A stretch of DNA of 33,188 bases, taken from assembly GCA_026391845.1 (NCBI GenBank), contig JAPLDG010000007.1, positions 1-33,188 on the forward strand, read 5' to 3'. Within the stretch, counting starts at the first letter, position 1; each line of letters starts with the position of its first letter. The stretch is from Bacteroidota bacterium (GTDB lineage: Bacteria > Bacteroidota > Bacteroidia > Bacteroidales > FEN-979). A program made the position numbers and the translations under genes. This document shows positions 7,015 through 30,793 of this stretch, piece after piece. Under the pieces are notes generated by a model. It did no database searches. It saw only the letters and a program-made list of their open reading frames with translations, and was not told the DNA's origin.

Positions 7015-7030
7015 AAACACAAAGTTGAAG

Positions 7031-13535: not shown

Positions 13536-14165
13536 ATGAATGAAAGTGCCTATTCAGCTTCTTTTTCAGCAGGAAGTCTATTACATAAGGAAACAACCGC
13601 ATTGCTTCCAATACTACTTTCTGAAAATCCAGAAGAACTAATTAAACTAGAAATCAAACAAAATAACCTGTTAAAAATTAATTCCGAAAGCTCAAGGAAG
13701 CGAACTGTTTCTGAAATTATTAAACGGTTGTCAACTGTTGATCAACCTTTTTGGGAGTATTATTCACACCGAATTGAGGAGGAACAAAAGTTATTACTTT
13801 TTTACCTATGCCTCAAATTATATAGAATAATGTTTGATTTTCACTTTAATGTTACACTTCAGCAGTGGAATTCCTCCTCACCTGTTATAGAACCTTTTTT
13901 GTATCAAATGGAATTGAATGAAATTTCAGGCAAAGAAGATACAGTGTTCAATTGGACAGATAAAACCAAAGCAAAAATCATATCCGTTTACATGAAGATC
14001 CTTAAAGATATAGGCATCTTGAATGCTGAAAGTTATCGGTTACAAGAACTTATTGTGGATAACTCCTTTTACTATTATTTTGTTCAGAAACGCGAGTTGT
14101 GGTTTTTAGATGCTTGCTTATTAAATATCCAAACAAAGAAAAATATAATAGATAGTGCCCTATGA
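13536..14165 (+). CDS. brxA: BREX protein BrxA
   Basis: A 209-residue protein of the DUF1819/BrxA family. Its N-terminus YSASFSAGSLLHKETTALL carries the family's Tyr-x-x-Ser-x-x-x-Ala-Gly-x-Leu start, and the helical body and Tyr/Phe-rich C-terminal part fit. BrxA is a small DNA-binding-like protein and the first gene of type 1 BREX operons. Its stop overlaps the ATG of brxB by four bases (ATGA, 14162-14165), which shows translational coupling. The gene is more AT-rich than the left-arm genes. Start is the ATG at 13536; no Shine-Dalgarno site is visible. Confidence 0.9.
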   Translation: MNESAYSASFSAGSLLHKETTALLPILLSENPEELIKLEIKQNNLLKINSESSRKRTVSEIIKRLSTVDQPFWEYYSHRIEEEQKLLLFYLCLKLYRIMFDFHFNVTLQQWNSSSPVIEPFLYQMELNEISGKEDTVFNWTDKTKAKIISVYMKILKDIGILNAESYRLQELIVDNSFYYYFVQKRELWFLDACLLNIQTKKNIIDSAL

Positions 14166-14770
14166 ATATGACCGTAGAAGAATTGTATCAAAAAATGGAA
14201 GACAAATCCTTCCAAGACAACTCGGTAGGATCAATGTTTTATAATGTGTATATTTTTCAGTATCCTGCTGAGGATGAATACGAAATATACAGACAGATTG
14301 ATGAGTTTAAAGTTAGACTAAAAAGGCCAAGTAATAATCTGGATATTTTAACTCTAAACATTTTCGATGAATTTTGTGCCTATTTAGACAAAAAGCCATT
14401 TGGAAAGAATCCGTCATATTTACAATACTTATTAAAAAAAGAAATCGGGAATTCACCTGCAATTCAAGAAACTCTAATTCGTCAGGCATGCGATGAAAAA
14501 TTCTTTGAGTGGATTGATAATCTGATCAGAGAACATCTTAACAAGGAAAATGAGTTGACTAAGTCTTTTGTTTATTTATATGGATTTGGACAAATGTATC
14601 CTTACTTACGAACTAATACCTTTTTATCAAATTTTGAACGATTTAACAACGGTGAACACTACAAAATTATCGTTTTTTATCCCGGCCATGCGCAGAAAAA
14701 CAGCTTTAGTCTGTTCGGCGTTTTAAAAGATGACCATACATATCGTTCAATTAACCTTATAAACGCATAG
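14162..14770 (+). CDS. brxB: BREX protein BrxB
   Basis: A 202-residue protein of the DUF1788/BrxB family. Recognisable features are the central NELTKSFVYLYGFGQMYPYLRT segment (quoted in part), the KIIVFYPGHAQKNSFSLFG block and a C-terminal DHTYRSINL, which corresponds to the family's closing YR-x-x-x-L motif. Its exact role in BREX is not settled; it is essential in the systems studied. It overlaps brxA by four bases and precedes brxC by 25 bases. Confidence 0.9.
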   Translation: MNMTVEELYQKMEDKSFQDNSVGSMFYNVYIFQYPAEDEYEIYRQIDEFKVRLKRPSNNLDILTLNIFDEFCAYLDKKPFGKNPSYLQYLLKKEIGNSPAIQETLIRQACDEKFFEWIDNLIREHLNKENELTKSFVYLYGFGQMYPYLRTNTFLSNFERFNNGEHYKIIVFYPGHAQKNSFSLFGVLKDDHTYRSINLINA

Positions 14771-14795: not shown

Positions 14796-17700
14796 ATGAA
14801 ATTAGCCGAAATTTACAGTAAACTTATTGACCGCATTATTAATCCTGCAGTAGTTGCTCAAGATCAAAATGGATCAACAATTCAAGTAGAAATTGAAGAA
14901 TATGTTTTTACTGACGAAATTATCAACAGTCTTTATAAGGTATTAGTTGCTATTAAGGAAAGAAATATTGATAAAACCGGAATTTGGATCAATGGATATT
15001 ATGGATCGGGTAAATCTCACTTTCTGAAATATCTGCATTATTGCATAAATGTTGATACGCGTGAAAAAGCTTTTGGCCGATTTATACAAGCTGTTAAAGA
15101 CCGTGATGCAATGCTTCATTTGGACAGTCGGATAACAATGAACAATGATGAAATAGCATCACTTAAACGATGGTATGATAAAGCAGAAATTGAAGATGTA
15201 TTGTTCAATGCACAGGATGTCTCAAAAGCTAATCGGGATAATACCACTTTTACGCACATCTTTTTTAATATGTTTAATGAGTGTCGGGGATACAATGCAT
15301 ACAATATCCCATTGGCTCTGCTTCTTGAAAAGTATCTGGATAAGAATAACTCTTTCGATCTGTTCAAACAAAAACTTGAAGAAGAAGAAGGCTTTATTTG
15401 GGACACTGATGCTGCTGACGTGGTGAGCAATGAATTAGATACGGTATTAAGTGTAGCAAAGAAATGTGTTCCGTCACTCGATATAGATGCATTGAAGGCA
15501 ACACTTTTACACCCGGAATCCTATCATATTGATACACGCAAATTTTCAAATGAAGTTAAAAGTTATATAAGTACTAAAGGAGAGGATTACCGATTTCTTT
15601 TCCTGGTGGACGAAGTATCACAGTTTATAAATGCCAACAAAGATGTTTTGCTCGATTTGCAGACTGTAATTGAACGCCTCAGTCCGGATTGCAACAAACA
15701 AGTTTGGATTGCTTGTACCGCACAACAAACCATTGAATCTGTCACCTATGAATCAGGTATCTTTACAACGGATGAAGCATATGGTAAAATTATGGGACGA
15801 TTTGAGACACGTGCTTCGTTGGAAAGTACAGATCCCGCTTACATTACCCAAAAAAGAATTTTAGAGAAAAACTCTACTGCAGAAGCAGCGTTGAAGGTAA
15901 TTTATCGAGATAATCAGGATGCTATTCTGAACCAGTTTATTATGGGACATGAATTATATAAAGGATTTCGGACTGAAGAAGATTTTCAGCTTTCATATCC
16001 GTTCATCCCTTATCAGTTCAAGCTAATAGCAAAAGTTTTCGATGCTTTTCAACAATTGGAGTATGTTTTAGCCGAAGTAAAAGACAATGAACGATCAGTA
16101 CTGAAAATTACCCACGAAACAGCAAAACTTGCAAAGGATCTCGACTTAGGTACGTTTATCTCTTTTGATGCTTTCTTTAATCAGATGTTTTGGCAGAACC
16201 TGATTCACAGGGGAACTAAAGCTATTTCTCCTGCATTGGAACTTGGATTTGTAAAAGTTGACTTATTTGCACAACGGGTAGTGAAATTGCTTTTTATGAT
16301 TTCTAATCTTCTCGATACTGATAAGGCCAATTTTGGTTCAACCTTAGACAATCTGACTTTGCTAATGATGACCAAACTTGATGAAAACAAGTTGCAATTG
16401 AGGAATCAGATTGAGGACGTACTGAAAAAATTGATCGAAAACAATATTGTTCGAGAAGAAAGCAAAAACTATTATTTCTATAATGAGGATGAAGTAGAGT
16501 TGTCAAAATTGATTGCTAATACACAGCCCGGCAGCGATTTCATTGCTGAAACATTTAAAGGTATCCTTTTCCCCTGGTTAAAGGTCGACAACAAAATTCG
16601 TTTTGCAGGTAACGACTTTAAAATTGCAGCTAGCATTGATGGGAAAAATTATTTAGGTACCAATAGCGATGTCAATGTATCATTTACAATTTTTGATGAC
16701 ACTGAAACAACTCAAAAAAGTTTGAGTAATCCTTCCCATACATTAATATTTTGTTTGAATGAATGGTTCATGGAGGATAAAGAATTGAGGATTAACTTCC
16801 AGTGGTTTTGCAAAGTAGAAAAATATATAAAGAATAATCAGGAGTATGCCACTGAGGCACGCAAAAAATCGATTGATAATTTCAAAAGCAGAAATGCTGA
16901 AATCAAACTGACTTTGGGGATGCCTTTAACTCAGGAAGACCTGAAACTTCGTGCCAACCGTGCCATAGCTCCAAATGAATATAGCGAATTGAATCCAATG
17001 ACCGATGCTGAATCGATGATTAACGACCATATAACCCGCCAGGGGAATGAATTATTGCTTTCCGACTTATTGGATAAATATAAAGCAGCACCTTATGGAT
17101 GGAAAGATGTAAGTATTATTTACATTGTAACAGAGTTATGTAAACGCAAACTCCGGGATCTGACCTATAAAAACCAGCCACGATATTCCATTACAAACTT
17201 TGTGAACAAAGCATTGGTGGCAAGTGAGTACAAAAATTTAGGAATCACCTCCGCACAAGAAATTTCGCAAGACATTATCAATAAAGCTATCCAAGCCTGG
17301 CTTATCATTTTCAACGAACATATATCACCTAACGGTGATGGAAATTCACTTTTTGATACGTTAAATAATGGGTTGATAAAACATTTCGAAGATTGGAAAA
17401 TTTTAAAAAATGACTATGAGAAGTACCTTTTTGCCAAGCATTTTAACCAATTAACAGATCTATTGACCGAATGGATAAGCATTCGTGAACCAAAACGTTT
17501 ATTTGAAATCCTGGATAAAGATGCTTCCGAAACAGCTCTTTTAATAGACAAATGTCGCAACCTCAAAGACTTTACAATTCACTCGTTGAAAGACTATTCT
17601 GACATCAGACGTTTCTGCGAGCTGAACGAAGAAAACTTCCAACACCTCGACGAGGTAGAAACCGTAAAAGTGGATCGACTAAAAACCTTCTTTCTTTCCG

Positions 17701-18218
17701 ATTACCCGGTTGACGATTTTCATCTTTGTAAGAAAACCTATAAAGAACTTAAAGAGGCTCTTACAAAGAGCATTAAAGATATTAAGGCTGAAACTCATAC
17801 ATGCTATAATGCTATTTTCGATGAACTTGATGCATTGGCTATTGAGAATGCGGTTGCGAATAATGTTTACGCCAATCGGGAGCAGAGTTTGACTTTAATA
17901 ACTAACCTGCAATCCATTACTATGCTCCGACTCGAACTTTCGCGGGCCGATAGTTTCTTTAGTGACGAACGAGGTAAAATCCTGCTCGATGCAAACCGTC
18001 AACAGCAAGAAAAAAGTCAAATAGAGCAAAATAAAAAAGACTATCCTACTAATAAGGAGAAACCGGTTCCGATTGTAACCGAACCTCCAGCCAGTTATAA
18101 CCTTCCTAAAGCCAATAAAATTCTGACATCAGAACTTGAAGTAGATGAATATCTGGCAATTATACGGAAGCAGATGATGGCACTTATACATGGCAATAAA
18201 AATATCCTCGTAAAATAA
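14796..18218 (+). CDS. brxC: BREX ATPase BrxC
   Basis: A 1140-residue P-loop protein of the BrxC/PglY family. Walker A is GYYGSGKSHFL (about 67-77) and Walker B is FLFLVDEVSQF (about 267-277). The long remainder is helical, with a charged coiled-coil-like region before a C-terminal tail (about 1060-1140). BrxC is a large STAND/AAA-like ATPase needed for both host methylation and phage exclusion, probably as part of the complex with PglX and PglZ. It is followed by pglX after six bases. Length is typical, and no frame break is seen. Confidence 0.93.
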   Translation: MKLAEIYSKLIDRIINPAVVAQDQNGSTIQVEIEEYVFTDEIINSLYKVLVAIKERNIDKTGIWINGYYGSGKSHFLKYLHYCINVDTREKAFGRFIQAVKDRDAMLHLDSRITMNNDEIASLKRWYDKAEIEDVLFNAQDVSKANRDNTTFTHIFFNMFNECRGYNAYNIPLALLLEKYLDKNNSFDLFKQKLEEEEGFIWDTDAADVVSNELDTVLSVAKKCVPSLDIDALKATLLHPESYHIDTRKFSNEVKSYISTKGEDYRFLFLVDEVSQFINANKDVLLDLQTVIERLSPDCNKQVWIACTAQQTIESVTYESGIFTTDEAYGKIMGRFETRASLESTDPAYITQKRILEKNSTAEAALKVIYRDNQDAILNQFIMGHELYKGFRTEEDFQLSYPFIPYQFKLIAKVFDAFQQLEYVLAEVKDNERSVLKITHETAKLAKDLDLGTFISFDAFFNQMFWQNLIHRGTKAISPALELGFVKVDLFAQRVVKLLFMISNLLDTDKANFGSTLDNLTLLMMTKLDENKLQLRNQIEDVLKKLIENNIVREESKNYYFYNEDEVELSKLIANTQPGSDFIAETFKGILFPWLKVDNKIRFAGNDFKIAASIDGKNYLGTNSDVNVSFTIFDDTETTQKSLSNPSHTLIFCLNEWFMEDKELRINFQWFCKVEKYIKNNQEYATEARKKSIDNFKSRNAEIKLTLGMPLTQEDLKLRANRAIAPNEYSELNPMTDAESMINDHITRQGNELLLSDLLDKYKAAPYGWKDVSIIYIVTELCKRKLRDLTYKNQPRYSITNFVNKALVASEYKNLGITSAQEISQDIINKAIQAWLIIFNEHISPNGDGNSLFDTLNNGLIKHFEDWKILKNDYEKYLFAKHFNQLTDLLTEWISIREPKRLFEILDKDASETALLIDKCRNLKDFTIHSLKDYSDIRRFCELNEENFQHLDEVETVKVDRLKTFFLSDYPVDDFHLCKKTYKELKEALTKSIKDIKAETHTCYNAIFDELDALAIENAVANNVYANREQSLTLITNLQSITMLRLELSRADSFFSDERGKILLDANRQQQEKSQIEQNKKDYPTNKEKPVPIVTEPPASYNLPKANKILTSELEVDEYLAIIRKQMMALIHGNKNILVK

Positions 18219-18224
18219 CTATAA

Positions 18225-21200
18225 ATGAATACAAGCGCATTAAAACGGTTTGCCCAACAGGCACGCAATATTCTAAAAACAGGTATTGAAAAACAATTGA
18301 TCTATTGGGGATACAACCCAAAAACGAAGCAATTTACTACTGAAGCTCATGAAGTATTTGGGGGAGCAGAGTTTGGAGGTAAACTGATTGATGATCCGGA
18401 TTTTTATAAAAAATGGATAGCACTGAAAAGTGCTGTATTGATTAAAGGCGTCGATCAGGTTGCAGAGCAAGCTGCTTATACCTGGTTTAATCGTTTGATG
18501 GCTATTCATATATTGGCAAAAAACAACTACATAATACCCCAACTGGAATACACCAGCGCAGAAACCAGGACACCACTCATTGTGCAAGCAGCCAAACGGG
18601 GCATAAGTCCCAGAATGAGCACCAATCAGGCAGCAATGATGAACAGTCTGATTGAGGATGATCGCCTGGAAACTGAATTATTTACCTTATTAATAACCGC
18701 TTATTGCCATGGAAATGAGCTGTTACAGCGTGTATTTGGCCGGATGGATGATTTTACTGAACTGCTTCTTCCAGCCGATATACTTGCCACAAAAGGCTTT
18801 ATCGATTTATTAAACACTACGGATGCAATAACGGATGAGGATTACCGGCAGGTGGAACTTATAGGGTGGCTCTATCAATTCTATATTTCGGAGAAAAAGG
18901 CAGAAGTGGATAAAAAGCCCAAAGTTTTATTAGAAGATATTCCTGCAGCTACACAGATTTTTACTCCCAACTGGATAGTGAAATACATGGTACAAAATAC
19001 TGTGGGACGAATTTGGCTTGACCTGAATCCGGAATCACGTATACGGGAACAAATGAAATACCTGGTTGAAAATCCAGATGTAAAAGTACAACCCATTGTA
19101 AATGAAGTGGCTCAGATTAAATTACTAGACCCGGCTTGCGGATCGGGGCATATTTTGGTCGAAGGATTTGACATACTCTATTCCATGTATCGTGAAGAAG
19201 GCTATTCGGCAGTTGAAGCTGTGAAGTCTATTTTTACAGATAACCTCTGGGGATTAGACATTGACGCTCGGGCAACACAACTCTCCACGTTTGCTCTATT
19301 ACTAAAAGCAGCGGCAAAAGACCGTACCGTGCTCGATCGAAATATTCTGCCCCACGTCTACCCAATGCCCGAAACACAAGCGTTTTCCAAGCAAGAAGTG
19401 ATGGACTTTCTGGGCGAAGCTAATGCAGCTCATTCTGCTAAGTTATATGATGCACTAATACTTATGCAACAAAGCCAGAATCTCGGCTCTATCATGAAGT
19501 TCTCTTTCAATGACAAAGCGCAAGAAGCCATAAATCAACAAATTTCTGCTTGGGAATCCAAACCCAACCTTGACTTACTGCATCAAGACCTTTGGAAACG
19601 TCTTTCGCCTTATTTACAAGTGTTACAATTGCTTATGCAACACTATGAAGCAGTGGTTGCAAATCCTCCATATATGGGAGATGGTAAAATGAATGGAGAA
19701 TTGAAGAAATATATTCAAACAAAGTATCCTTTAAGTAAAGCAGATTTATTTTCGGTTTTTATGGAAGTTTGTTTGAATTTCTGTCAGATAAGGGGGCGTA
19801 TGGGAATGATAAATATGCACTCGTGGATGTTTCTTTCTTCGTTTGAAGCACTACGAAAAATGATTATCGATACCTATTATATCGAAAATATGTTGCATTT
19901 AGGTCCGCACACATTTGACGAATTAGGCGGTGAAGTAGTGCAAAATACAGCATTCGTATTTAGAAAATCAAAATCCTTTGAAACGGGTGTATACTATCGA
20001 TTGGTAAACGAGCCTAATTGTTCCGCAAAAGAAAATGCATTCTTCAAAATTGATAATTTATTTACAAATATTAATCAGTTTAATTTCGTTAAAATCAAGG
20101 GAAGTCCTGTCGCTTATTGGGCTAGTAAAAATGTTGTAAGTATTTTTAATAAAGCTGATTTATTGGATGATTCAACTACAATTAGGCAAGGATTAGCAAC
20201 TGGTAATAATCTACAATTTTTGAGACTATGGTTTGAAATAAACAATCTAAAGTTTTTTAGAAAATGTAAGTCAATTGAAGAGGCTAAGTCAATAAATATA
20301 AAATGGATGCCTTTTAATAAAGGAGGTGAAAATAGAAAATGGTCAGGAAATTATGATTTTGTTATTGCATTTGATAAGGAAAACATTGAATTATTATCAA
20401 AATCCGGCAATCAATTACCTTCTAAAGATTTATATTTTAAAAAAGGTATAACATGGACGGCAATTTCGACTAGCAAATTTAGTGTAAGAGAACATTTGAG
20501 TGGTTCTATTTTCTCCAATGCAGGAATGGTTTGTATTCTTGATAATAAGATTTTTGAATATGTAATGGCCTTATTGAATTCAAAAGTGCTTTCAGCGATA
20601 CTTAGTGTTTTAAGTCCAACATTAAATTTCAATGCAGGTGACATAAAAAGAATACCATTAATAATTAGCTCCAACCTTAAGATTAATGATTTTTGTCTGC
20701 TCAATATTGTTATTTCAAAATCTGATTGGGATTCCCATGAAACCTCTTGGGATTTTGAAAAACAACCATTAATTAATTTGAACAAAACTTCCTTGGAATC
20801 CGCTTATCAGTCTTGGGAAGAAAAAGTAACGCAGGACTTTTACCAGCTTCATGCCAATGAAACGGAGTTAAATCGTATTTTTATTGAAATCTATGGGTTG
20901 CAGGAGGAACTAACGGCTGAAGTAAAACTTAAGGATATTACCATATTGCAAGAAGAAATAGACAGCACAGCATTAAGCGATGCTACCAAACCAATTGGCA
21001 AACTACCCATAAAAAAGGATGTCGTGATACGTCAGATGGTTTCTTACATGATAGGTTGCCTGTTGGGGCGCTATCGCCTGGATAAACCGGGACTGTATAT
21101 TGCCCACCCAAACCCATCTGCAGAAGAAACGGCTGCTTACGAATATAATGGTTGTAGAGTAAATATCGATGAGGATGCCATTGTGCCATTAATGGATAAC

Positions 21201-21716
21201 TCCTGCAGTTTTGGCGACAACGCACTTATCCAACTAAAAAACCTGCTGGAAATACAATGGGGTGCAGATGAAAAATTGATAGAAACCATCAATTACTTGG
21301 AAGCAGCTTTAGGCAAGGAACTTGAAAATTACCTGGTAAAAGATTTCTGGAAGGACCATTGCCAGCGCTACCAGAAACGTCCAATCTATTGGTTATTCGC
21401 ATCGCCCAAAGGAGCTTTCCAGGTAATAACCTATATGCATCGTATGAATAAATACACGGTTGAGAAAATTCGCAAGTATCTGCTTCGGCATATCAGCAAT
21501 TTAGAAAATAGGGAAGCTGTATTATCTGGTACGAGCGATTCACTCGATCGTATTCAAATCCGTGAATTGGAAAAACTACAGCGCGACTTGCAGGAATGCC
21601 GCGATTATGACCTGGTTCTGAAAGATGTAGCCGATCATCAAATCGAATTCGATCTGGACGATGGTGTAACCGTAAATTACCAAAAGTTTGGAAGTGTAGT
21701 GGCAACGATAAAATAG
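18225..21716 (+). CDS. pglX: BREX type 1 adenine-specific DNA methyltransferase PglX
   Basis: A 1163-residue protein. Motif I LLDPACGSGH (about 299-308) binds S-adenosylmethionine, and motif IV NPPY (about 480-483) marks N6-adenine methylation. PglX methylates one strand of an asymmetric site in host DNA and so tells self from phage. The region after the catalytic domain (about residues 600-860, bases 20040-20800) should hold the target recognition domain; it is visibly more AT-rich than the two ends of the gene, which suggests recombinational replacement of the specificity region. The C-terminal region (about 900-1163) is conserved-looking again (KKDVVIRQMVSYMIGCLLGR). The frame is intact. 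pglZ follows after 37 bases. Confidence 0.95.
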   Translation: MNTSALKRFAQQARNILKTGIEKQLIYWGYNPKTKQFTTEAHEVFGGAEFGGKLIDDPDFYKKWIALKSAVLIKGVDQVAEQAAYTWFNRLMAIHILAKNNYIIPQLEYTSAETRTPLIVQAAKRGISPRMSTNQAAMMNSLIEDDRLETELFTLLITAYCHGNELLQRVFGRMDDFTELLLPADILATKGFIDLLNTTDAITDEDYRQVELIGWLYQFYISEKKAEVDKKPKVLLEDIPAATQIFTPNWIVKYMVQNTVGRIWLDLNPESRIREQMKYLVENPDVKVQPIVNEVAQIKLLDPACGSGHILVEGFDILYSMYREEGYSAVEAVKSIFTDNLWGLDIDARATQLSTFALLLKAAAKDRTVLDRNILPHVYPMPETQAFSKQEVMDFLGEANAAHSAKLYDALILMQQSQNLGSIMKFSFNDKAQEAINQQISAWESKPNLDLLHQDLWKRLSPYLQVLQLLMQHYEAVVANPPYMGDGKMNGELKKYIQTKYPLSKADLFSVFMEVCLNFCQIRGRMGMINMHSWMFLSSFEALRKMIIDTYYIENMLHLGPHTFDELGGEVVQNTAFVFRKSKSFETGVYYRLVNEPNCSAKENAFFKIDNLFTNINQFNFVKIKGSPVAYWASKNVVSIFNKADLLDDSTTIRQGLATGNNLQFLRLWFEINNLKFFRKCKSIEEAKSINIKWMPFNKGGENRKWSGNYDFVIAFDKENIELLSKSGNQLPSKDLYFKKGITWTAISTSKFSVREHLSGSIFSNAGMVCILDNKIFEYVMALLNSKVLSAILSVLSPTLNFNAGDIKRIPLIISSNLKINDFCLLNIVISKSDWDSHETSWDFEKQPLINLNKTSLESAYQSWEEKVTQDFYQLHANETELNRIFIEIYGLQEELTAEVKLKDITILQEEIDSTALSDATKPIGKLPIKKDVVIRQMVSYMIGCLLGRYRLDKPGLYIAHPNPSAEETAAYEYNGCRVNIDEDAIVPLMDNSCSFGDNALIQLKNLLEIQWGADEKLIETINYLEAALGKELENYLVKDFWKDHCQRYQKRPIYWLFASPKGAFQVITYMHRMNKYTVEKIRKYLLRHISNLENREAVLSGTSDSLDRIQIRELEKLQRDLQECRDYDLVLKDVADHQIEFDLDDGVTVNYQKFGSVVATIK

Positions 21717-21753: not shown

Positions 21754-24279
21754 ATGTTACAAGATAAAATTAAAACCTATTTCAACCGCAATCCTCAATT
21801 GAAGATTCTTTTCTTCTTCGACCCCGAAAGAGAAAATGAAGAAGAAGTCAAATTGATAAACATGGAGGGTGTGCAGGTAGAATATGCTCAGAATGATTGG
21901 TTTAACCTGAAAGTGAAATTTAACACAATTTGGAAAAACCAAAAGGTATTCCTATACCTGCGTATGTCGTCACCGCAAACCCAGGAAGACTTCCTCAACT
22001 TCCCGTTGCTTGGATTACTAAAGGCAAATAAAGAGTTGCGACTGGACAGCATCGCTGACTTTATGGAAGAGTTTGGGTTGAAATCGCACCAAATCAATTT
22101 GGTAAAAAAACATATAAAAGAATTGAAATACAGCCAAACGCAACAAGTACTGCGAGCTTGGTTAAATGCTGCCAACTTTGAAGAAAACAAAATACAGCAA
22201 GGACTTTTTTGTGTTTTTCTTGATCTCCCTAAAATGGAAGACTGGAATACCATAATTGTCCGGCTCTTGTCTTATTCAATTGAAAGCAAAGAAAAAGAGC
22301 TACTCCGTTTCTTTAAAAAAACAAAGGAGAATGGACTCTTGGATGTATTAAATAAACGCATCCGCCGCTGTTTTGGAGAAAGCCTTGAAGAAGCTGTGCC
22401 AGCTGAAGTTGTGGAATTAGTAAAACGGATGAAATATAATTCCATAGTCCAGGAATTTGTTGTCAATGAAGCCGACCCTTACAAGGCACTTAAAATAAAA
22501 GATGTTGACTGCATAGAGCCATTAAATCAACTTCGGGAGATGGGCTTGAATCATCCGTATCTGGGTAAAAATTTTGACGAAGTCCTCAAGATTAATGGTG
22601 CTTCAATTTTGGAATCCAGAATTATTGAACTCTATGGTGCAGATGCCAACTATGTGTACATGACTGATGAGCTAAAGTGGGAAGTCATTCGGTACTTGCT
22701 TAATCAATGTTTTGAACAACCTGGCAATTCAGGGAAGATATTGGAGCGAATATCGATTCAAACACAAGAGGATGGTTCACTGAAAGGAACTTTGTCATTT
22801 TTGGTATACACAACAGAGTTATTCAATAAAATTGATCAAATCAAAAGTTTGGTTTTTGATACACCGGACGAATATATTCAAAAATACACTGCTCAATTTT
22901 ACCTGATAGATCATCTGTACCGTAAATGTGTATTCATTTACCGTTCATTAGAATTAAATACAATTCCGGTGGAAGAGTTACTGGAACAACTTAAACTTCA
23001 GATTGAAAACAAATACAGTAAGTTTATTTATACACTGAATCGTGAATGGTTGTCCTGTTTGAGTTCAAAACAATTTGAATATAATAGTATAAGCTGCCCT
23101 AAACAATTCGATTTTTTCAAGAGGCTTATCCAACCATTGAAACAGAAAGTAGCTGTTATAATCAGTGATGCTTTACGCTACGAGGTTGCACAGGAATTGC
23201 TTAACGAACTGCATACTGATGATAAAAATGTATCTGAACTCAGTTGTCAATTAGCCTCACTTCCTTCCGAAACTGCATTTGGTATGGCTAATTTATTGCC
23301 GGGAAAATCGTTTGTTTATGATGGTGAAATCAAAATTGATGGTGAAAAACCTTTCAGTATTGACCAGCGCGATAAGATTTTAAAAAAACATTCAGATCGA
23401 TATAAAGCTGTCAGTTTCGAAACCATACTGAATGGTAGTAAACAAGATAACCGGGATTTATTTAAAGCAGATGTGATATATATATACCATGACATTATAG
23501 ACAAAGAGGGGCACAAAGGCACCGAGCGCAATGTTTTCAATGCTGCGCAAGTAGCAATCAATGAATTGTCTAAAATGGTAAAACAAATTCAAGGTGGATT
23601 TGGGGTTAATAAAGTAATCATCACCGCTGATCATGGGTTTATATACAATGACACTGAAATACAAGAAGCTGATAAAAATGAAATGGCCGAATGTCCCATT
23701 ATCGATGCTGGTGCTCGGCACTATGTAACCAATGGTGATCCAGAGATTGCAATTGGGCACAAGATTGCCTTATGTAAAACAACTAAATATCAGGGACCTT
23801 ATAAAGTTGTTATTCCTGACTCGGTCAATCGATTTAAAAAATCAGGATCACGTTACAAATTCACTCATGGAGGCGGAAGTATGCAGGAATTAATAGTTCC
23901 GGTAATTGAAAGCTCTCGTAAGGAAGATAAAGTTCAGAGAAAAGTAAAGCCACTATTACTTAGCCACAATCTGTCTATTGTATCGAATAATCTGAAAATT
24001 CAATTGTTACAGGAAAATCCACTTTCAGCCAGAGAAAAGGAGTGTACTATTGAGGTTGGAATTTTCAATGACACAGTTCTGGTATCCAACAAAGTAGTAC
24101 TAACATTAAACTCTATCGGTGAAATGCCATCGGAAAGAGCTTATACAGTTTCATTGGCGTTAAACATAAAATCAACTGAAAGCATACTCAAATTGAAAAT
24201 ATTTGACAGGGATGATTTGCTGAATCCACTTAATGAAGAAAACGTAAAGAATAATACTTTAATAGAAAGAGACTTTTAA
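21754..24279 (+). CDS. pglZ: BREX protein PglZ (alkaline phosphatase superfamily)
   Basis: An 841-residue protein. The PglZ domain lies in the second half, with AVIISDALRYEVAQEL (about 467-482) giving the metal- and nucleophile-site region and ITADHGF (about 623-629) a second metal-binding motif of the alkaline phosphatase fold. The C-terminal GGGSMQELIVPV is typical of the family. PglZ is required for BREX activity and binds the PglX complex; the N-terminal half is helical. The stop (24277-24279) and the brxL start (24281) are one base apart, so the two are almost certainly co-translated. Confidence 0.94.
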   Translation: MLQDKIKTYFNRNPQLKILFFFDPERENEEEVKLINMEGVQVEYAQNDWFNLKVKFNTIWKNQKVFLYLRMSSPQTQEDFLNFPLLGLLKANKELRLDSIADFMEEFGLKSHQINLVKKHIKELKYSQTQQVLRAWLNAANFEENKIQQGLFCVFLDLPKMEDWNTIIVRLLSYSIESKEKELLRFFKKTKENGLLDVLNKRIRRCFGESLEEAVPAEVVELVKRMKYNSIVQEFVVNEADPYKALKIKDVDCIEPLNQLREMGLNHPYLGKNFDEVLKINGASILESRIIELYGADANYVYMTDELKWEVIRYLLNQCFEQPGNSGKILERISIQTQEDGSLKGTLSFLVYTTELFNKIDQIKSLVFDTPDEYIQKYTAQFYLIDHLYRKCVFIYRSLELNTIPVEELLEQLKLQIENKYSKFIYTLNREWLSCLSSKQFEYNSISCPKQFDFFKRLIQPLKQKVAVIISDALRYEVAQELLNELHTDDKNVSELSCQLASLPSETAFGMANLLPGKSFVYDGEIKIDGEKPFSIDQRDKILKKHSDRYKAVSFETILNGSKQDNRDLFKADVIYIYHDIIDKEGHKGTERNVFNAAQVAINELSKMVKQIQGGFGVNKVIITADHGFIYNDTEIQEADKNEMAECPIIDAGARHYVTNGDPEIAIGHKIALCKTTKYQGPYKVVIPDSVNRFKKSGSRYKFTHGGGSMQELIVPVIESSRKEDKVQRKVKPLLLSHNLSIVSNNLKIQLLQENPLSAREKECTIEVGIFNDTVLVSNKVVLTLNSIGEMPSERAYTVSLALNIKSTESILKLKIFDRDDLLNPLNEENVKNNTLIERDF

Positions 24280-24280
24280 A

Positions 24281-26332
24281 ATGGATCTGAAAGAAAAAAT
24301 ATTGACGTACTTCGAGGGTAAAGTTGTAAGAAAAGACCTTGCCACTATAGTTAAAGGTAATCTGCCAGTACCAACCTACGTAATTGAATATTTATTAGCG
24401 CAATATTGTGCGGTTGACGATGAACAAATTATTGCTGAAGGAATTGAAAAGGTTAAGGAGATAATCCGGAATAACTATGTTAACCGAGCGGAAGCAGAAA
24501 TAATCAAGGGTCGTATCAGGGAACATGAACGTTATCGAGTGATTGACAAGGTGAATGTAAAGCTTAATGATAATATTCAAAATCAATTTGAGGCTGATTT
24601 TGCCAATTTAGCTATACCCAAAATTCCTATAAGTGATGATGTTGTTCAACGCAATCCTAAATTTTTGAGTGGAAACGGAGTATGGTGTATTGTTACTTTG
24701 GCATATGACCATTCAGAGACTGCACGTATCCGGTGGAGGATTGAGGATATAAAGCCAATCCAAATTTCAGCAATAGATTATGATTATTATATTAGTCAGC
24801 GTCAAAATTTTACAACTGAGGAATGGATCGACTTTTTGGTACAATCTATAGGAATTAAACCAGCAGTATTAAACAGAAGGGGTAAATTTATTCAATTAGC
24901 TCGCTTATTACCACATGTTGAGAATAATTATAACTTTATCGAGTTGGGGCCTAAGGGAACAGGCAAATCACATATATTTCTTGAACTTTCCCCAAATGGT
25001 GTGTTGGTTTCAGGTGGAGATATTACATCTGCACGACTGTTTGTTAAGCACTCGGGTAATAAGGAAATACTGGGGTTGGTTGGATACTGGGATGTAGTAG
25101 CAATGGATGAATTTGAGCGCCAACCTGGAAAAAAGGCGGATGCTGTTCTGGTAGATCACATGCAAACCTATTTGGCAAACAAATCTTTCAACCGCGGCGG
25201 AACTCCTCATGAAGCTGTAGCTTCCATGGCTTTTGTTGGCAATACAAAGCATACTGTTCCTTTCATGTTAAAAAATTCCAATTTATTTGAATCAATCCCG
25301 GAAGGTTTTATCAAAGGAGCGTTTTTGGATCGAATTCACCTTTATAATCCAGGTTGGGAAGTAAGAGTTTTGAAAAAAACGTGGTTCTGTGATGATTTCG
25401 GATTTATATCTGATTACTTAGCTGAATTACTGCATATTCTCCGCAAGCAAGACAATTCTTCTATGTTAAATGATTATGTAAAGTTCGATTCTTCATTGAC
25501 TGAACGTGATCACAATGCCATTAGAAAGACATTTTCTGGATTGATGAAACTCATTTATCCCGATAAAATTATCACCCAGGAAGAAGCATTGGAATTAATA
25601 GATTTTGCAACCGAAGGACGTAAAAGAGTTAAAGATCAACTGTATATAATAGATGAAACTTTTAAGGCAGAGCCAGTATCGTTTAACTATAAAATTCTCG
25701 CGACAGGCGAGACAGTGAATATAGAAACTCTGGAGCGAATAGACAATCCTGCCTTTTTTGCGACTATTCTGTCTCCTTTATCGTCTTCCACAAATGAAGA
25801 GGGTGATAATCGCAATGAATCAATTGAAGGAACACAAATTAAACGGCCCCGAATTGAACTTTTGCCCAAAGTAAAGAACCTTTCAGTTCGTGAGAATCAG
25901 ACGGGCATTTCATATGAAGCCTTATTCGGGGATTATTTAAAAGGGGCAAAACAAATTACTATTGAAGATCCATTTATTCGTATGCCTTATCAGATAAAGA
26001 ATTTGATTGAACTGCTAAGCTTGATTTCTCGTCTGAAAGAAGTGGATGAAGAAGTAAATGTTCATCTTCTGACTTCGAACAGTGACGAACGAATTCCAGA
26101 TTCTATCGACGCTTTTGACGAAATAACAGAATCTGTATTGGAAGTTGGGATTAATTTCACATACGAGTTCAAGGAATTCCATGATCGTAAAATTGTCACA
26201 GATACTGGTTGCGAAATTATTCTTGGGAGAGGGCTAGATATTTTTGAGGCAAGAAGAGGATATTCTATTGAGGAATTTATGCAGGAAAGGAGAAGATGTA
26301 AAGCTTTTTCAGCCGTATTTCTTAAAGGTTAG
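24281..26332 (+). CDS. brxL: BREX AAA+ protein BrxL with C-terminal MITD1-like (MIT_C) domain
   Basis: A 683-residue protein. The N-terminal domain (1 to about 150) has the BrxL signature GKVVRKDLATIVKG and the AVDDEQIIAEGIEKV region. The AAA+ domain has Walker A GPKGTGKS (about 223-230), Walker B VVAMDEFER (about 272-280) and GTPHEAVASMAFVGNT. BrxL family proteins form DNA-binding ring assemblies needed for phage exclusion but not for methylation. After an acidic, serine-rich linker (about 500-535) the C-terminus (538-683) does not look like a Lon protease domain. It reads like the PLD-like C-terminal domain of eukaryotic MITD1: SYEALFGDYL, ITIEDPFIRMPYQIKN, VHLLTS, FHDRKI (633-638) and LGRGLDIF. 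I saw no Lon Ser/Lys dyad. Last gene of the operon. Confidence 0.92.
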   Translation: MDLKEKILTYFEGKVVRKDLATIVKGNLPVPTYVIEYLLAQYCAVDDEQIIAEGIEKVKEIIRNNYVNRAEAEIIKGRIREHERYRVIDKVNVKLNDNIQNQFEADFANLAIPKIPISDDVVQRNPKFLSGNGVWCIVTLAYDHSETARIRWRIEDIKPIQISAIDYDYYISQRQNFTTEEWIDFLVQSIGIKPAVLNRRGKFIQLARLLPHVENNYNFIELGPKGTGKSHIFLELSPNGVLVSGGDITSARLFVKHSGNKEILGLVGYWDVVAMDEFERQPGKKADAVLVDHMQTYLANKSFNRGGTPHEAVASMAFVGNTKHTVPFMLKNSNLFESIPEGFIKGAFLDRIHLYNPGWEVRVLKKTWFCDDFGFISDYLAELLHILRKQDNSSMLNDYVKFDSSLTERDHNAIRKTFSGLMKLIYPDKIITQEEALELIDFATEGRKRVKDQLYIIDETFKAEPVSFNYKILATGETVNIETLERIDNPAFFATILSPLSSSTNEEGDNRNESIEGTQIKRPRIELLPKVKNLSVRENQTGISYEALFGDYLKGAKQITIEDPFIRMPYQIKNLIELLSLISRLKEVDEEVNVHLLTSNSDERIPDSIDAFDEITESVLEVGINFTYEFKEFHDRKIVTDTGCEIILGRGLDIFEARRGYSIEEFMQERRRCKAFSAVFLKG

Positions 26333-26507: not shown

Positions 26508-27542
26508 TCATTTTAAATGTTTAACTATATTAATAATTTGCAAATAAAATTCCTTGTATGTGCTACAAGGAACAGGTATCACCGATACACCAAGGGATCT
26601 AAGCACATCTGTGACAGCATCTGTTTTCTGGATAGCAAGCTTTTTCTTATACCGGTCTATGAACGGAATCTTATTGTCAGATTCGAAATCTAACCCGTGG
26701 TCTTTCTTTACCGCTGAGAAATAAATAATTTCATTATTGATTTCTATATCATGCTTATTTTTTGATCGCATGAGTTCTGCTCTATGAAGCAATAACCACC
26801 AAAGATGATTTTCGGAGAAATCCAGTGAGAATCCAGCAATAATAAGCTTGTGTGTGAAGAACAAATCCATCCAGTATCGTAATTCGTCATTATCACGTAT
26901 TCTTATCAGCAAGCTTTTTTTTCCGCTTTTCTTTTGTCTTCCACTTTCTCCAATGATAATCCTTTGAATCCTTTCAAAATATTCCGAGTAGTGTTCAAAG
27001 CCAATCATTATGGATTCTTGAGGAAAATTAGGCAAAGAGGGGTTGGTTTTTCGATTGTGATATAATTCGCCATGAACGTGTCTAACATTAATATCACCAA
27101 TCTTATATCCCCTATACAAACTGTGTTTGGATTCTGAATTATCGATTGAGTATTTGATTTTGTTTTCCATGAAATCAGTTGTCAAGGCATTTTCAAGGTT
27201 GTAATCATAATTTGTTGTGATGATTTCCTTAATGCCGCTTTCCATAAAGCCACAATGGACATTGATATCGACTAACTTACTGGCTTCCGCTTCCAATATT
27301 CTTGAAATACTAATTTTAAGTTGCTTCAATTTTTCTCCATTTTCTCCCGATCCTGGTTTTGAATAAAGCATCTCCTCAAATGCTAAAGGAAACGGCTTTA
27401 AATCATTTGTAAGGTCAACCTTTATCCGGAATGAATCTGAAATCAATTTCAATAAAGCGCCCCAGGATGCTCCTCTATTTTCCTCAGTCCTGTTTATACC
27501 ATTACCAAGAAATAATGCCGTTTGACCTTTAAAACTTTTCAT
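26508..27542 (-). CDS. SIR2-like domain protein (putative NAD+-consuming defence effector)
   Basis: A 344-residue protein from the ATG at 27542; a TTG five codons upstream is possible. SIR2-like features in order: LFLGNGINR (10-18, nucleotide-binding loop), EIITTNYDYNLE (about 106-117) and VRHVHGEL (about 153-160), with the histidine expected in catalysis. Later, IIAGFSLDFSENHLWWLL is typical of bacterial SIR2_2-type proteins. Several such proteins (ThsA, DSR and others) deplete NAD+ to abort phage infection, so an abortive-infection role is plausible but inferred. The C-terminal half shows no recognised sensor domain, and no partner such as an Argonaute is adjacent. The gene is AT-rich like BREX and converges on brxL. 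An 8-bp inverted repeat lies about 45 bases upstream. Confidence 0.8.
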   Translation of the reverse strand: MKSFKGQTALFLGNGINRTEENRGASWGALLKLISDSFRIKVDLTNDLKPFPLAFEEMLYSKPGSGENGEKLKQLKISISRILEAEASKLVDINVHCGFMESGIKEIITTNYDYNLENALTTDFMENKIKYSIDNSESKHSLYRGYKIGDINVRHVHGELYHNRKTNPSLPNFPQESIMIGFEHYSEYFERIQRIIIGESGRQKKSGKKSLLIRIRDNDELRYWMDLFFTHKLIIAGFSLDFSENHLWWLLLHRAELMRSKNKHDIEINNEIIYFSAVKKDHGLDFESDNKIPFIDRYKKKLAIQKTDAVTDVLRSLGVSVIPVPCSTYKEFYLQIINIVKHLK

Positions 27543-27586
27543 TTTTTCGAATGACAATTTGCTTTTGGATAAATTTCATCAGATAT

Positions 27587-27709: not shown

Positions 27710-30700
27710 TTATGCTTCCCAACTACCTCTCACTACACTCCCCCGCTCCTCATCATTCGTAACCTTCAGAAAAGTTTCAATTTCTGTCTGCATCTCCTCA
27801 ACATGTGAAATGACACCAACAATCCGGTTCTCTTTTCTCAGGGATTTTAATGTGTCGAATGCCACTTCGAGGGTCTCCTTGTCCAGGGTACCAAAGCCCT
27901 CATCAAGGAAGAAGAAATTTTCGGAGGAGGCTGCCAGTTTGTGAATACTATCGGCCAGGGAGAGCGCCAAGGAGAGGGAGGCCTGGAATGTTTGCCCGCC
28001 GGAGAGCGTCTTGACATTTCGGAGACGGCCGTCATTCATATAGTCACGAACCTCAAAGCTGTTATCTTCAGATAGTTCAAGGCCGAGTTTTTGCCTGGTC
28101 AGTTTATAAAAACGTTCATTGGCGGCTATACAAAGGTTTTGAAGGTACACGGTGGATACATAATTGACAAAACCATTGCTTCGGAAAAGGTTTTTCAATT
28201 CCGTTATATCCTGCCTCCTCAGTTCTTTTTGGTGCATCTCCTTTTTCAGGTTCTCATACTTTACCTGGTTGTTTTTCATGGTGGCGATAGCAGATTCAAG
28301 GCCGCCGATGTTCCGGTTTATGCCATCGACCGACAGTTTCATGGCATGGATCTCTTCTTTCATCAGTTGGTGTGCATCCTCATCATATGGCCGGTTGGCC
28401 AGTTCCAGCTCCAGTTCTGCCAGCATTTTAGATATCGTCGTCAATGATTGATTGAACTCCTCCAGTATGGCCCGCTCCTTGTCGACGTCCATGTCGTGCT
28501 TTAATACCGACAGTACATGAGAATATTCCAGTTTGCCATGATCCAGGAGCTTATCGTCAATTTTTTGTCGCAGGATTTTGACCTGGACTTCTAGTTCCGA
28601 ATGGCTCCGTTCCATTGCTCCGATTGTTCCATTGAGTTCGCCGATGGCAATGTTGATGGAATTCAGCTCTTTTTCCGTTGCGAGATAATTTCGGGTAAGT
28701 TCGGCATGCTGACTGGCCAGCTCCTGCGATTTTTCAAGGAGTTGTTCAAAGGAAAGTGCGTCATACTTCTCCATTGAATGCTGGTCAATCTGATCCTCCA
28801 GCATGTTTACGGTGGTATGAGCAGCAACTTTATGTTTTTCGATCTGGTTAATCTCCGTTTGTTGTTTTTCCAGCAATTTCCCTTGCTCTTCAACCTCATG
28901 GCTGACATTTTTCATTTCCTTTGCCAGGGAGCTGATCGATTTTGTAAGGAGGTCGAATTGGGCCTCCGCTTCTGCAACTTTTGCTTCATTGTTCTTTTCA
29001 TACATGGCCCAGCAAAAAGACTCTTCATGTTCCTTTGAGGCCACCTGTAATAAATTGAGCCCAATATGAAGCTCGGCATTTTGCGCTGCAACGGAATCCA
29101 GCTTCACCTGGATGCCGGTTAATGCTCTTTCCAGCTCAATGCATTTTTTTACCAGTGCTTCCAATGACTTTTTAGTGGTCCTTTCCCTAGCAATGTCGCT
29201 GTCAACATCCGTTGAATTGATCTTGTGGGGATGATTTTCTGAACCGCAGAGCGGGCATGGCTTTCCATCGTGAAGATCGGCTGCAAAATCCTCCAGCCTT
29301 TTCTGCACTTCCAGACCTGCTATCTGCAATTCCACTATGGTCAGTTTACCCTGTAGTTCAGTTTTACTGGCATCAATCCTGATCAATATTTCACCCGGAT
29401 CAACCTCATCTGACATGGTTTCAAACAGATCGGATCGGTTGATTTCTGTCAGTGTCTGGCTATTCAGGATTTTTAACAAGTCATCCTGTTCCCCGGCTTT
29501 CTTCAGATTTTCTGCAGTGGATTTGGTCAGTCTTTTCATTTCGCTAAACCAGGCCTTTACATCAGAAAGAATTTTATAATCCGGGAGATTCTTCCGCTGA
29601 ACACCAAGCTCGATGTCTATTTGTTCCTGTTTTGTTTTGTCGGCAGCGACAAGGCCGGTCAATCTTTCAATTTCCCTGCCGGCTGTTTCACCATTTTTCT
29701 GAAGAATTTCAAAGTATGCCAGCGTCTTTTTCACCTCTGCATATTTTTTTGTATCCTCCGATTCTGCAAGCAAGTGCTCTTTATTTCCGTAAGCATCCTT
29801 AAGTTCGTCAAACCTTATCCTGACAGGGATGGCTTTCTTCTGAAGATCAGCAAGGATGGTTTGTTGAATTGCGAGATCCTTGCCACTTTTCCCGAATTGC
29901 TCCTGCAAACCTTCAAACAGGGTAGCGTCTGCCTTGAAATGTTTGAATAGCAGATCATATTCCTTAACCCTGATCTCAAGTTCCTTCATTGCACCTTCCG
30001 ATCGCTTAAGCTCAGCTTGTGCCGTTTTTTTACCTACGATTTCGCCGACTAGTTTCTTCAGGCTTTCTGCCTCCTGGTCAGCTTTTTCCTTTATGGCAAG
30101 GTTGGTTGACATAACAACCTTTTCAGCCAGCAGGGAACCTTTCCTGATTTCGAGTTCAGTTATCATCTCCGTATTCACTTCTCCTATTCCCTTCATCTCA
30201 CCTTCAATGAACTGTATTGCTTTGTCATTCTTGGCATCAAGCCTTCCAATTTTATCAGATAATTCATACTTCGACAGGTTGAACAACTCTTTCAGCATGG
30301 TTGTACGATCTGTTGAACTCAATTGGAGGAATTCCTGGAATCTTCCTTGGGGAATGATGATGGTCCGGCGGAAATTCTGATAGTTCAATCCGGTGATCGT
30401 CTCAATCTCATTTGTCGAAATGGGAACCCACTCTTCATTTTCAAAACGAAAAGCTTTTCGTTCGAAGGCTCCCACCTCCTCAAATCTGATGTTATTTCTT
30501 TTTCCCTGGACGATGAACTTATAAATTGTTTCATTGTGTGATTTAAACTCAAAATCAATCAGCAGTTTTTTTGATTTCAGGTTCATCATGTTATAATTTC
30601 GCTTGTCCCTGGAATTCAACCGCTCCGATTCTCCATACAGGGCAAACGAAATTGCTTCCAGTATGGATGACTTACCGCTGCCAACGCCTCCGAAGATCCC

Positions 30701-30793
30701 AAAAAGGCCGGATTGGGTGAGGTTGGTAAAATCAATAGTTTGCCTGGTACGATAGGAATATAATCCTTCGATTGTTAAGTTTAATGGGATCAT
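27710..30793 (-). CDS. sbcC: Exonuclease subunit SbcC (Rad50-like SMC ATPase)
   Basis: A 1027-residue protein of normal length for SbcC. Walker A is GVGSGKSS (36-43), and the Q-loop region RTIIIPQGRFQEF follows. Two long coiled-coil arms surround a zinc hook CPLCGSENH (about 514-522). The ABC signature LSGGQTFQASL (about 934) and Walker B FFLDEGFGTLD (about 963) lie at the C-terminus. With SbcD it would form the ATP-dependent nuclease that opens hairpins and blocked DNA ends. Its ATG overlaps the sbcD stop by four bases (30790-30793), showing tight coupling. sbcD is disrupted, so the ATPase may lack its nuclease partner. More GC-rich than BREX. Confidence 0.93.
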   Translation of the reverse strand: MIPLNLTIEGLYSYRTRQTIDFTNLTQSGLFGIFGGVGSGKSSILEAISFALYGESERLNSRDKRNYNMMNLKSKKLLIDFEFKSHNETIYKFIVQGKRNNIRFEEVGAFERKAFRFENEEWVPISTNEIETITGLNYQNFRRTIIIPQGRFQEFLQLSSTDRTTMLKELFNLSKYELSDKIGRLDAKNDKAIQFIEGEMKGIGEVNTEMITELEIRKGSLLAEKVVMSTNLAIKEKADQEAESLKKLVGEIVGKKTAQAELKRSEGAMKELEIRVKEYDLLFKHFKADATLFEGLQEQFGKSGKDLAIQQTILADLQKKAIPVRIRFDELKDAYGNKEHLLAESEDTKKYAEVKKTLAYFEILQKNGETAGREIERLTGLVAADKTKQEQIDIELGVQRKNLPDYKILSDVKAWFSEMKRLTKSTAENLKKAGEQDDLLKILNSQTLTEINRSDLFETMSDEVDPGEILIRIDASKTELQGKLTIVELQIAGLEVQKRLEDFAADLHDGKPCPLCGSENHPHKINSTDVDSDIARERTTKKSLEALVKKCIELERALTGIQVKLDSVAAQNAELHIGLNLLQVASKEHEESFCWAMYEKNNEAKVAEAEAQFDLLTKSISSLAKEMKNVSHEVEEQGKLLEKQQTEINQIEKHKVAAHTTVNMLEDQIDQHSMEKYDALSFEQLLEKSQELASQHAELTRNYLATEKELNSINIAIGELNGTIGAMERSHSELEVQVKILRQKIDDKLLDHGKLEYSHVLSVLKHDMDVDKERAILEEFNQSLTTISKMLAELELELANRPYDEDAHQLMKEEIHAMKLSVDGINRNIGGLESAIATMKNNQVKYENLKKEMHQKELRRQDITELKNLFRSNGFVNYVSTVYLQNLCIAANERFYKLTRQKLGLELSEDNSFEVRDYMNDGRLRNVKTLSGGQTFQASLSLALSLADSIHKLAASSENFFFLDEGFGTLDKETLEVAFDTLKSLRKENRIVGVISHVEEMQTEIETFLKVTNDEERGSVVRGSWEA

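What the first reader, a model, noticed from the sequence alone, without database searches (positions are those of the whole stretch)
25892..26332. BrxL ends in a MITD1-like PLD (MIT_C) domain, not a Lon protease domain
Residues 538-683 follow the human MITD1 C-terminal domain in order: SYE-x-LF-x-x-YL, I-x-DP[FY]IR, QIKN, VHLLTS, HDR-x-I and GRGLD-x-F, with a closing cysteine-containing helix. In MITD1 this domain has a phospholipase-D-like fold and binds membrane in ESCRT-dependent cytokinesis. No Lon catalytic dyad is seen. A BrxL that joins a DNA-translocating AAA+ ring to such a domain suggests a different end function from proteolysis. I cannot say how widely this version is already described.
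Basis: partly seen in the sequence, partly recalled or inferred. Interest (0 to 1): 0.7.

Follow-up and report, generated by a model that had tools for sequence, protein, structure and literature searches.

The report
BREX protein BrxL with nuclease-like tail
A bacterial anti-phage protein ends in a domain of the same family as part of the human cell-division protein MITD1; this design is already described and is most likely a DNA-cutting tail, but its kinship to the human domain is closer than expected and open to test.

Summary
BrxL (24281-26332, +) is the last gene of a complete type 1 BREX operon. Its C-terminus matches Pfam MIT_C (PF16565; 130.6 bits, cut-off 25) and human MITD1 (phmmer E 6e-15). 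The predicted fold is that of MITD1 (Z 22), and no relation to the Lon-type BrxL tail was found. The architecture is known: PADLOC has a full-length model, and a January 2026 paper reports 1030 such tails among 2913 BrxL-bearing type 1 taxa, as an HKD-endoDNase with Lys changed to Arg (that this is MIT_C is my inference). My data fit: H634 is kept in 131 of 132 and R636 in 132 of 132 distinct domains, and fold matches below MITD1 include PLD-type restriction nucleases (SauUSI, NgoAVII, BfiI) but also phospholipid enzymes. A membrane role has little support. In no paper searched did I find this: human MITD1's domain is closest not to this BrxL (35% identity) but to another BrxL subgroup (up to 50% over 143 residues), tree support 100/99. 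Direction of any transfer is unresolved. No activity was tested.

The parts
24281..26332 (+). brxL, 683 aa: BrxL_N + BrxL ATPase + MIT_C (PLD-like) C-terminal domain
24308..24706 (+). BrxL_N domain, residues 10-142 (PF20442, E 2.2e-42)
24734..25672 (+). BrxL_ATPase (AAA+) domain, residues 152-464 (PF13337, E 1.2e-114)
25781..25855 (+). low-confidence linker, residues 501-525 (pLDDT under 50)
25904..26317 (+). MIT_C / PLD-like domain, residues 542-679 (PF16565)
26180..26203 (+). H-x-R-x4-D motif, H634, R636, D641 (HDRKIVTD)
   Evidence: (conservation), sequence
26225..26239 (+). GRGLD motif, residues 649-653
13536..14165 (+). brxA
14162..14770 (+). brxB
14796..18218 (+). brxC (pglY) ATPase
18225..21716 (+). 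pglX (brxX) adenine methyltransferase
21754..24279 (+). pglZ

Best explanation
This is the BrxL restriction factor of a type 1 BREX operon in the variant form whose C-terminal domain is a PLD-fold MIT_C domain instead of an inactive Lon-like domain. Most likely mechanism: the N-terminal domain and AAA+ ring assemble on unmodified phage DNA (ATP-dependent DNA assembly is shown for the Acinetobacter homologue, inferred here). The MIT_C tails, carried on a flexible linker, pair up, since single-motif PLD enzymes are known to build one active site from two subunits (general knowledge; not tested here). They then nick or cut the DNA through H634 with R636 in place of the usual lysine. The pairing may also take over the ring-to-ring contact that the Lon-like domain makes in Acinetobacter BrxL. 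Shown here: domain make-up, predicted fold, operon, conserved motif. Inferred: dimerisation, DNA cutting.
For: Domain order and full BREX operon. Fold: MITD1 Z 22.1-22.3, then SauUSI 9.5, NucT 8.7, NgoAVII 8.7, BfiI 8.1, Nuc 7.9 among 1000 chains re-aligned. H634 in 131 of 132, R636 in 132 of 132, D653 and R671 in 132 of 132 distinct rows; position 641 D 98, N 32, S 2. 107 of 112 fetched loci hold a BrxL core match and 91 of 112 a PglZ match. A short protein beside an NsnB-like ATPase matches both MIT_C and PADLOC's Menshen NsnC model, weakly (28.5 and 31.6 bits). A DNase reading of such tails is in print: PMC12839542 (passages).
Against: No activity has been measured here or, in the passages I read, by the authors of the DNase reading. 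The motif is not a true HKD: Lys is Arg, and position 641 is Asn in 32 of 132 rows, as in human MITD1. Fold neighbours also include phospholipid enzymes (PLDs, PS synthase at Z 9.2, vaccinia F13), so the fold does not choose the substrate; Z of 7 to 8 is only middling. In the solved Lon-type BrxL the tail sits far from the DNA in the pore (PMC10164562), so a tail in the same place would have to reach in. PglZ is already reported as a BREX nuclease (PMC12839542).
Confidence: 0.6

Rival explanations
1. Non-catalytic assembly and sensing domain: the PLD-like tail only joins two BrxL rings or docks BREX partners or DNA ends, as the inactive Lon-like tail does, and the conserved His/Arg pocket binds a phosphate without cutting.
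For: In the solved BrxL the tail mediates ring-ring dimerisation, has no protease motif and lies far from the DNA (PMC10164562, passages). The Lys of HKD is replaced and position 641 varies D/N. BrxL cores carry either tail type: of 57 BrxL_ATPase match rows in 395 Bacteroidota genomes I took the 46 near-complete ones; 25 have MIT_C, 13 have another long frame and 8 have short frames, at least 2 of those cut by contig ends.
Against: H634, R636, D653 and R671 are kept in 131-132 of 132 distinct domains that go down to 27% identity with the window's, which is more than assembly seems to need.
Confidence: 0.27
2. Membrane or lipid effector as in MITD1: the tail brings BrxL and bound DNA to the membrane, for instance at the phage entry site, or damages it.
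For: Close structural match to MITD1, whose PLD domain binds membranes (title of Hadders 2012 in the reference list of PMC9477494; paper itself not read). Phospholipid enzymes among the fold neighbours. One bacterial MIT_C is fused to a dynamin-family GTPase.
Against: 107 of 112 loci pair MIT_C with a BrxL core, whose solved homologue binds DNA; fold neighbours after MITD1 include restriction enzymes. I did not look for membrane segments.
Confidence: 0.1
3. A Lon-type protease domain too diverged to be recognised.
For: The family is annotated 'Lon protease-like'.
Against: Profile comparison with Lon-type BrxL tails gives 0.2% probability, E 0.37 (only two sequences on that side); Lon-type TIGR02653 matches only 3-467 of 675; confident PLD-like model, pLDDT 91.9.
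Confidence: 0.01

Closest known systems
BrxL with C-terminal HKD-endoDNase (PMC12839542, NAR 2026, passages; credited there to Li et al. 2025, not held)
   Same: Same architecture as described: BrxL N-terminus, MCM-like AAA+, PLD-type tail with Lys to Arg; type 1 BREX; PglZ kept
   Different: No difference seen in the passages. That its HKD domain is MIT_C is my inference: the main text has no occurrence of MITD1 or MIT_C, and its supplements could not be looked at
Acinetobacter BrxL (8emc, 8emh)
   Same: Residues 5-457 align over N-terminus and AAA+ ring; the full model aligns to it at 40-42% identity over about 480-490 columns in several chains
   Different: Its tail is Lon/RadA-like and inactive (PMC10164562); this one is PLD-like
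Human MITD1 C-terminal domain (4a5z, 2ymb)
   Same: Same Pfam family and fold, about 30% identity in structure alignment, same His, Arg, GRGLD, Arg, Cys
   Different: No MIT domain here; MITD1 has Asn at position 641; MITD1 lies nearer to BrxL subgroup II than to this protein
Menshen NsnC-like protein
   Same: Short protein in L146 scores to both PF16565 (28.5 bits) and PADLOC NsnC (E 3e-8) and keeps H-D-R-x4-D
   Different: Stand-alone, beside an NsnB-like ATPase; the similar protein in L147 has no NsnC match; a 2023 review describes Menshen by DUF262 and an OLD-type nuclease and names no PLD domain in it (PMC10952713, passages)
SauUSI, NgoAVII, BfiI (PLD-type restriction nucleases)
   Same: PLD fold at Z 8.1-9.5; SauUSI is ATP-dependent by its entry title, NgoAVII works with an ATPase (recalled)
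   Different: 6-18% identity, HKD motif with Lys (recalled), different ATPase type (recalled)

Membership tests
MIT_C (PF16565) | Profile score over the curated cut-off across the domain | tested here: met
   130.6 bits vs 25, positions 1-139 of 142
MIT_C (PF16565) | Fold of the MITD1 C-terminal domain | tested here: met
   predicted model: Z 22.1-22.3, rmsd 1.7-2.3 A over 149-152 residues; Foldseek E 1e-15
BrxL | BrxL N-terminal and ATPase domains | tested here: met
   PF20442, PF13337; TIGR02688 507.7 bits vs 329.3; PADLOC PDLC02508 over 3-693 of 698
BrxL | Place in a type 1 BREX operon | tested here: met
   brxA, brxB, brxC, pglX, pglZ, brxL in one row on one strand
Lon-type BrxL (TIGR02653) | Lon-like C-terminal domain | tested here: not met
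   499.1 bits vs cut-off 628.25, only 3-467 of 675 matched; hhalign 0.2%
HKD PLD nucleases | H-x-K-x4-D motif | tested here: not met
   H634 and D641 present, Lys replaced by Arg (R636); 132 of 132 distinct rows have Arg
HKD PLD nucleases | PLD fold | tested here: met
   (predicted model)
HKD PLD nucleases | Two motifs joined in one active site (dimer) and DNA cleavage | not testable with these tools
   monomer prediction only; no assay
MITD1 (ESCRT cofactor) | N-terminal MIT domain | tested here: not met
   Pfam scan lists only BrxL_N, BrxL_ATPase and MIT_C

The most novel reading that the evidence does not exclude
The C-terminal domain of the human cytokinesis protein MITD1 and the tail of one BREX BrxL subgroup come from one source by transfer between bacteria and eukaryotes, most likely from bacterial anti-phage defence into the ESCRT system, and both keep a PLD-type His/Arg pocket that may still bind or cut a phosphodiester.
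Probability: 0.35. Interest if true: 0.65.

Novelty: already known. Interest (0 to 1): 0.33.

Why it matters
For BREX, how phage DNA is finally blocked is not settled; a BrxL whose ring ends in a probable nuclease makes a direct test possible with two point mutations. For cell biology, the close match between a BrxL tail and human MITD1 gives a clear hypothesis on where a human ESCRT cofactor domain came from, and suggests testing MITD1 for phosphodiesterase or nucleic-acid activity.

Tried and rejected
Lon domain: rejected. The 50 rows shown for the tail model in each list no Lon entry, which alone would prove nothing.

'The MIT_C tail was gained several times by BrxL': on the core tree the label needs 3 changes (41 rows), but starred branches force only 1, and with three long-branch rows left out a single MIT_C group is not rejected (p-AU 0.097, 38 rows). 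So tail swapping is suggested, not shown. An earlier quick tree counted two 'short' BrxL rows (L168, L176) as a type of their own; one search showed both run to a contig end, and they were dropped.

RefSeq names as proof that the architecture was known: rejected. Only 2 of 24 plasmid records carry the name 'MIT C-terminal domain-containing protein', one for the loose end of a BrxL annotated in pieces and one for a dynamin fusion; 17 of the 24 are named 'Lon protease-like protein BrxL'.

Conservation count: the first count (136 bacterial rows) had L025 wrongly cropped and L136 left out. One search corrects it: 143 rows, 132 distinct, leaving out human MITD1, two Nsn-like proteins and the dynamin fusion. 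Also left out: L001 (the window itself), the weak or partial hits L003, L027, L028 and L029, and L030-L032, which scored under the cut-off and look like chance hits. L003 and L028 are the Nsn-like proteins later read from L146 and L147. Of the 143, L025 (Sel1 protein), L155 (349 aa, not BrxL) and L150 (BrxL annotated in pieces) are not intact BrxL.

Of the 29 MIT_C rows, 4 lie beside no BrxL.

Is human MITD1 inside subgroup II or its sister? Unresolved: the first tree put it inside (92/84), the second beside it (76/10). Only one eukaryotic sequence was available. In one search L025 was still mis-cropped and had a very long branch; one search repeats the tree with it corrected and the Nsn, dynamin and some other long rows left out. 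The Nsn rows were too distant to root the tree.

Phage collection: no match for the window's tail. Dynamin fusion: no second case found in plasmids or viral contigs.

Papers: the Menshen paper of Li et al. 2025 is not held. Searches for a stated link between BREX/BrxL or bacteria and MITD1: MITD1+PLD+bacteria, 8 papers; MITD1+phospholipase D+fold, 8; BREX+MITD1, 1 cancer review; BrxL+MIT domain, 0. One search, with loose terms, was uninformative. In one search one paper held both MIT_C and PF16565 (PMC12715929, passages); papers with PF16565 alone could be hidden in that list. I judged the lists from titles and abstract starts.

Full report
What is there. The window holds a complete type 1 BREX operon on the + strand: brxA 13536-14165, brxB 14162-14770, brxC 14796-18218, pglX 18225-21716, pglZ 21754-24279 and brxL 24281-26332. 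The closest tails found are from Bacteroidota (Proteiniphilum 69-71%, a Prevotella bin 65%). BrxL has 683 residues: BrxL_N 10-142, BrxL_ATPase 152-464 and MIT_C 542-679, all far over Pfam's cut-offs. The Acinetobacter BrxL structures match only residues 5-457, while human MITD1 matches 533-658 with E 6.4e-15.

Fold. AlphaFold2 on the last 177 residues with 43 sequences gave mean pLDDT 91.9; the full protein with 42 gave 83.2 with a poorly ordered linker at 501-525. Foldseek ranks MITD1 first (E 1e-15), followed by phospholipases D, PS synthase and vaccinia F13. VIA-align 2 gives MITD1 Z 22.1-22.3, then SauUSI 9.5, PS synthase 9.2, NucT 8.7, NgoAVII 8.7, PLD4 and PLD3 8.6, Tdp1 8.5, BfiI 8.1 and Nuc 7.9. 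So the predicted fold is clearly PLD-like; the step from MITD1 to all others is large, and fold alone does not tell DNA from lipid. A profile of the tail compared with two Lon-type BrxL tails gives 0.2% probability. The full model matches the solved BrxL rings over about 480-490 columns in several chains and MITD1 over the tail.

Conserved residues. Over 143 bacterial domains (132 distinct; mostly BrxL tails, exceptions named in Tried and rejected), H634 is kept in 131, R636 in 132, D653 in 132, R671 in 132, R567 and Q571 in 132, D563 and N574 in 130; position 641 is D in 98, N in 32 and S in 2. By spacing, H-x-R-x4-D/N corresponds to the H-x-K-x4-D of PLD enzymes (spacing recalled; the HKD triad and its Lys to Arg change are described in PMC12839542). 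Human MITD1 keeps H and R and has N. That pattern reads as a working site rather than a scaffold, but I could not inspect it in three dimensions.

Distribution. Two peptide patterns found 288 relatives in the species genomes, of which the best 80 were kept, plus 32 viral-catalogue contigs. Of these 112 loci, 107 hold a BrxL core match (presence in the locus, by tblastn), four of the other five have the frame cut at a contig end, and one (L056) has a frame that runs on from PglZ-like sequence; 91 of 112 hold a PglZ match (L056 frame read). In 395 Bacteroidota genomes, 25 of 46 near-complete BrxL ATPase matches, the window's among them, have MIT_C within 600 bases downstream on the same strand, 13 have other long frames and 8 have short frames, at least two of the short ones being contig-end cuts. 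Plasmid BrxL copies with the tail occur in Gammaproteobacteria, Alphaproteobacteria, Actinomycetota and Bacteroidota.

What is already known. PADLOC's model PDLC02508 covers the whole protein. PMC12839542 (passages) states that in 2913 type 1 BREX taxa with BrxL there are 1030 instances where a C-terminal HKD-endoDNase replaces the inactive Lon domain, with Lys replaced by Arg, and credits an earlier report (Li et al. 2025, not held). That this domain is MIT_C is my inference from place, fold class and the Arg change; the main text names neither MIT_C nor MITD1. PMC12715929 (passage) lists PF16565 with BREX. PMC10164562 (passages) reports that the Lon-like tail lacks protease residues, joins two rings tail to tail and lies far from the DNA; that disrupting the ATPase site equals deletion of the gene; and that of the remaining mutants only R104A was reduced (about 10-fold).

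Mechanism. I think the tail most likely cuts DNA held by the BrxL ring (0.6). The arguments are the motif, the company of a DNA-binding AAA+ ring, structural neighbours among restriction enzymes, and a weak link of the same domain to a Menshen NsnC-like protein beside an NsnB-like ATPase (a review of Menshen names no PLD domain in it). Against it: no assay, the Lys to Arg change, the tail's distance from DNA in the Lon-type structure, and a second nuclease (PglZ) in the same operon. A pure assembly role is the main rival (0.27). A membrane role is possible (0.1).

The unexpected part. Among the tails there is a second group: 18 of 131 distinct rows (those over 50% identical to L060, plus two Hymenobacter rows), 40-50% identical to human MITD1 against 25-38% for the 113 others. 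L060 is 50% identical to human MITD1 over 143 residues (142 bits), while the same L060 tail scores only 77 bits to the window's tail, and phmmer gives it E 3.1e-41 to MITD1. Trees put human MITD1 with this group at 98/98 (54 rows) and 100/99 (44 rows). Whether it lies inside the group is unresolved. With one eukaryotic sequence I cannot say who gave the domain to whom. I found no paper that makes this link in the searches.

Other bearers of the domain: a dynamin-family GTPase with a MIT_C end (L151), a Sel1-repeat protein near a DpdE-like helicase (L145), and short proteins after NsnB-like ATPases (L146, L147).

Scores. Observation confirmed; architecture already known; interest 0.33, mainly for the MITD1 kinship and the testable nuclease question.

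Noticed in passing
L060:5971-6438, L152:6381-8480, L153, L004, L005, L006, L050-L058, L061, L063, L064, L150: A separate BrxL subgroup has tails 40-50% identical to human MITD1, closer to it than the other BrxL tails are.
   Followed up: partly
L151:5640-8483 (Candidatus Thiodictyon syntrophicum plasmid pTs485): A 947-aa protein joins a dynamin-family GTPase (65-293) to a MIT_C domain (798-936) with HDR-x4-D kept; no second case in plasmids or viral contigs.
   Followed up: partly
L145:10113-13310: MIT_C (233-370) in a 1065-aa protein with 17 Sel1 repeats, downstream of a helicase best matching DpdE and of a 1299-aa ORF with an NPPW motif read by eye.
   Followed up: partly
L146:1215-1886 (-), L147:11780-12706: Short MIT_C proteins after NsnB-like ATPases; the one in L146 matches Menshen NsnC, the one in L147 does not.
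   Followed up: partly
window 26210-26212 (residue 644): Cys where 131 of 132 distinct rows have Trp, beside the H-x-R-x4-D motif; real change or assembly error unknown.
   Followed up: no
L018, L017: In two genomes of one genus the tail is changed at conserved sites: H634 to Gln (L018), R650 to Cys (L017).
   Followed up: no
L150:4424-6465: Hymenobacter sp. BRD67 plasmid brxL is annotated in several pieces, the MIT_C part as a CDS of its own.
   Followed up: no
window 26508-27557 (-) and 27710-30793 (-): A SIR2-like protein (weak ThsA match) and a long SbcC-like ATPase (partial LmuB and mad3 matches) lie just downstream on the other strand, possibly more defence genes.
   Followed up: no
window 5716-10423 (+): A PD-(D/E)XK protein and a UvrD helicase with a PD-(D/E)XK end, AddAB-like in layout (the AddAB name is recalled).
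   Followed up: no
window 12344-13336 (+): 330-aa ORF before brxA with no Pfam or PADLOC match.
   Followed up: no
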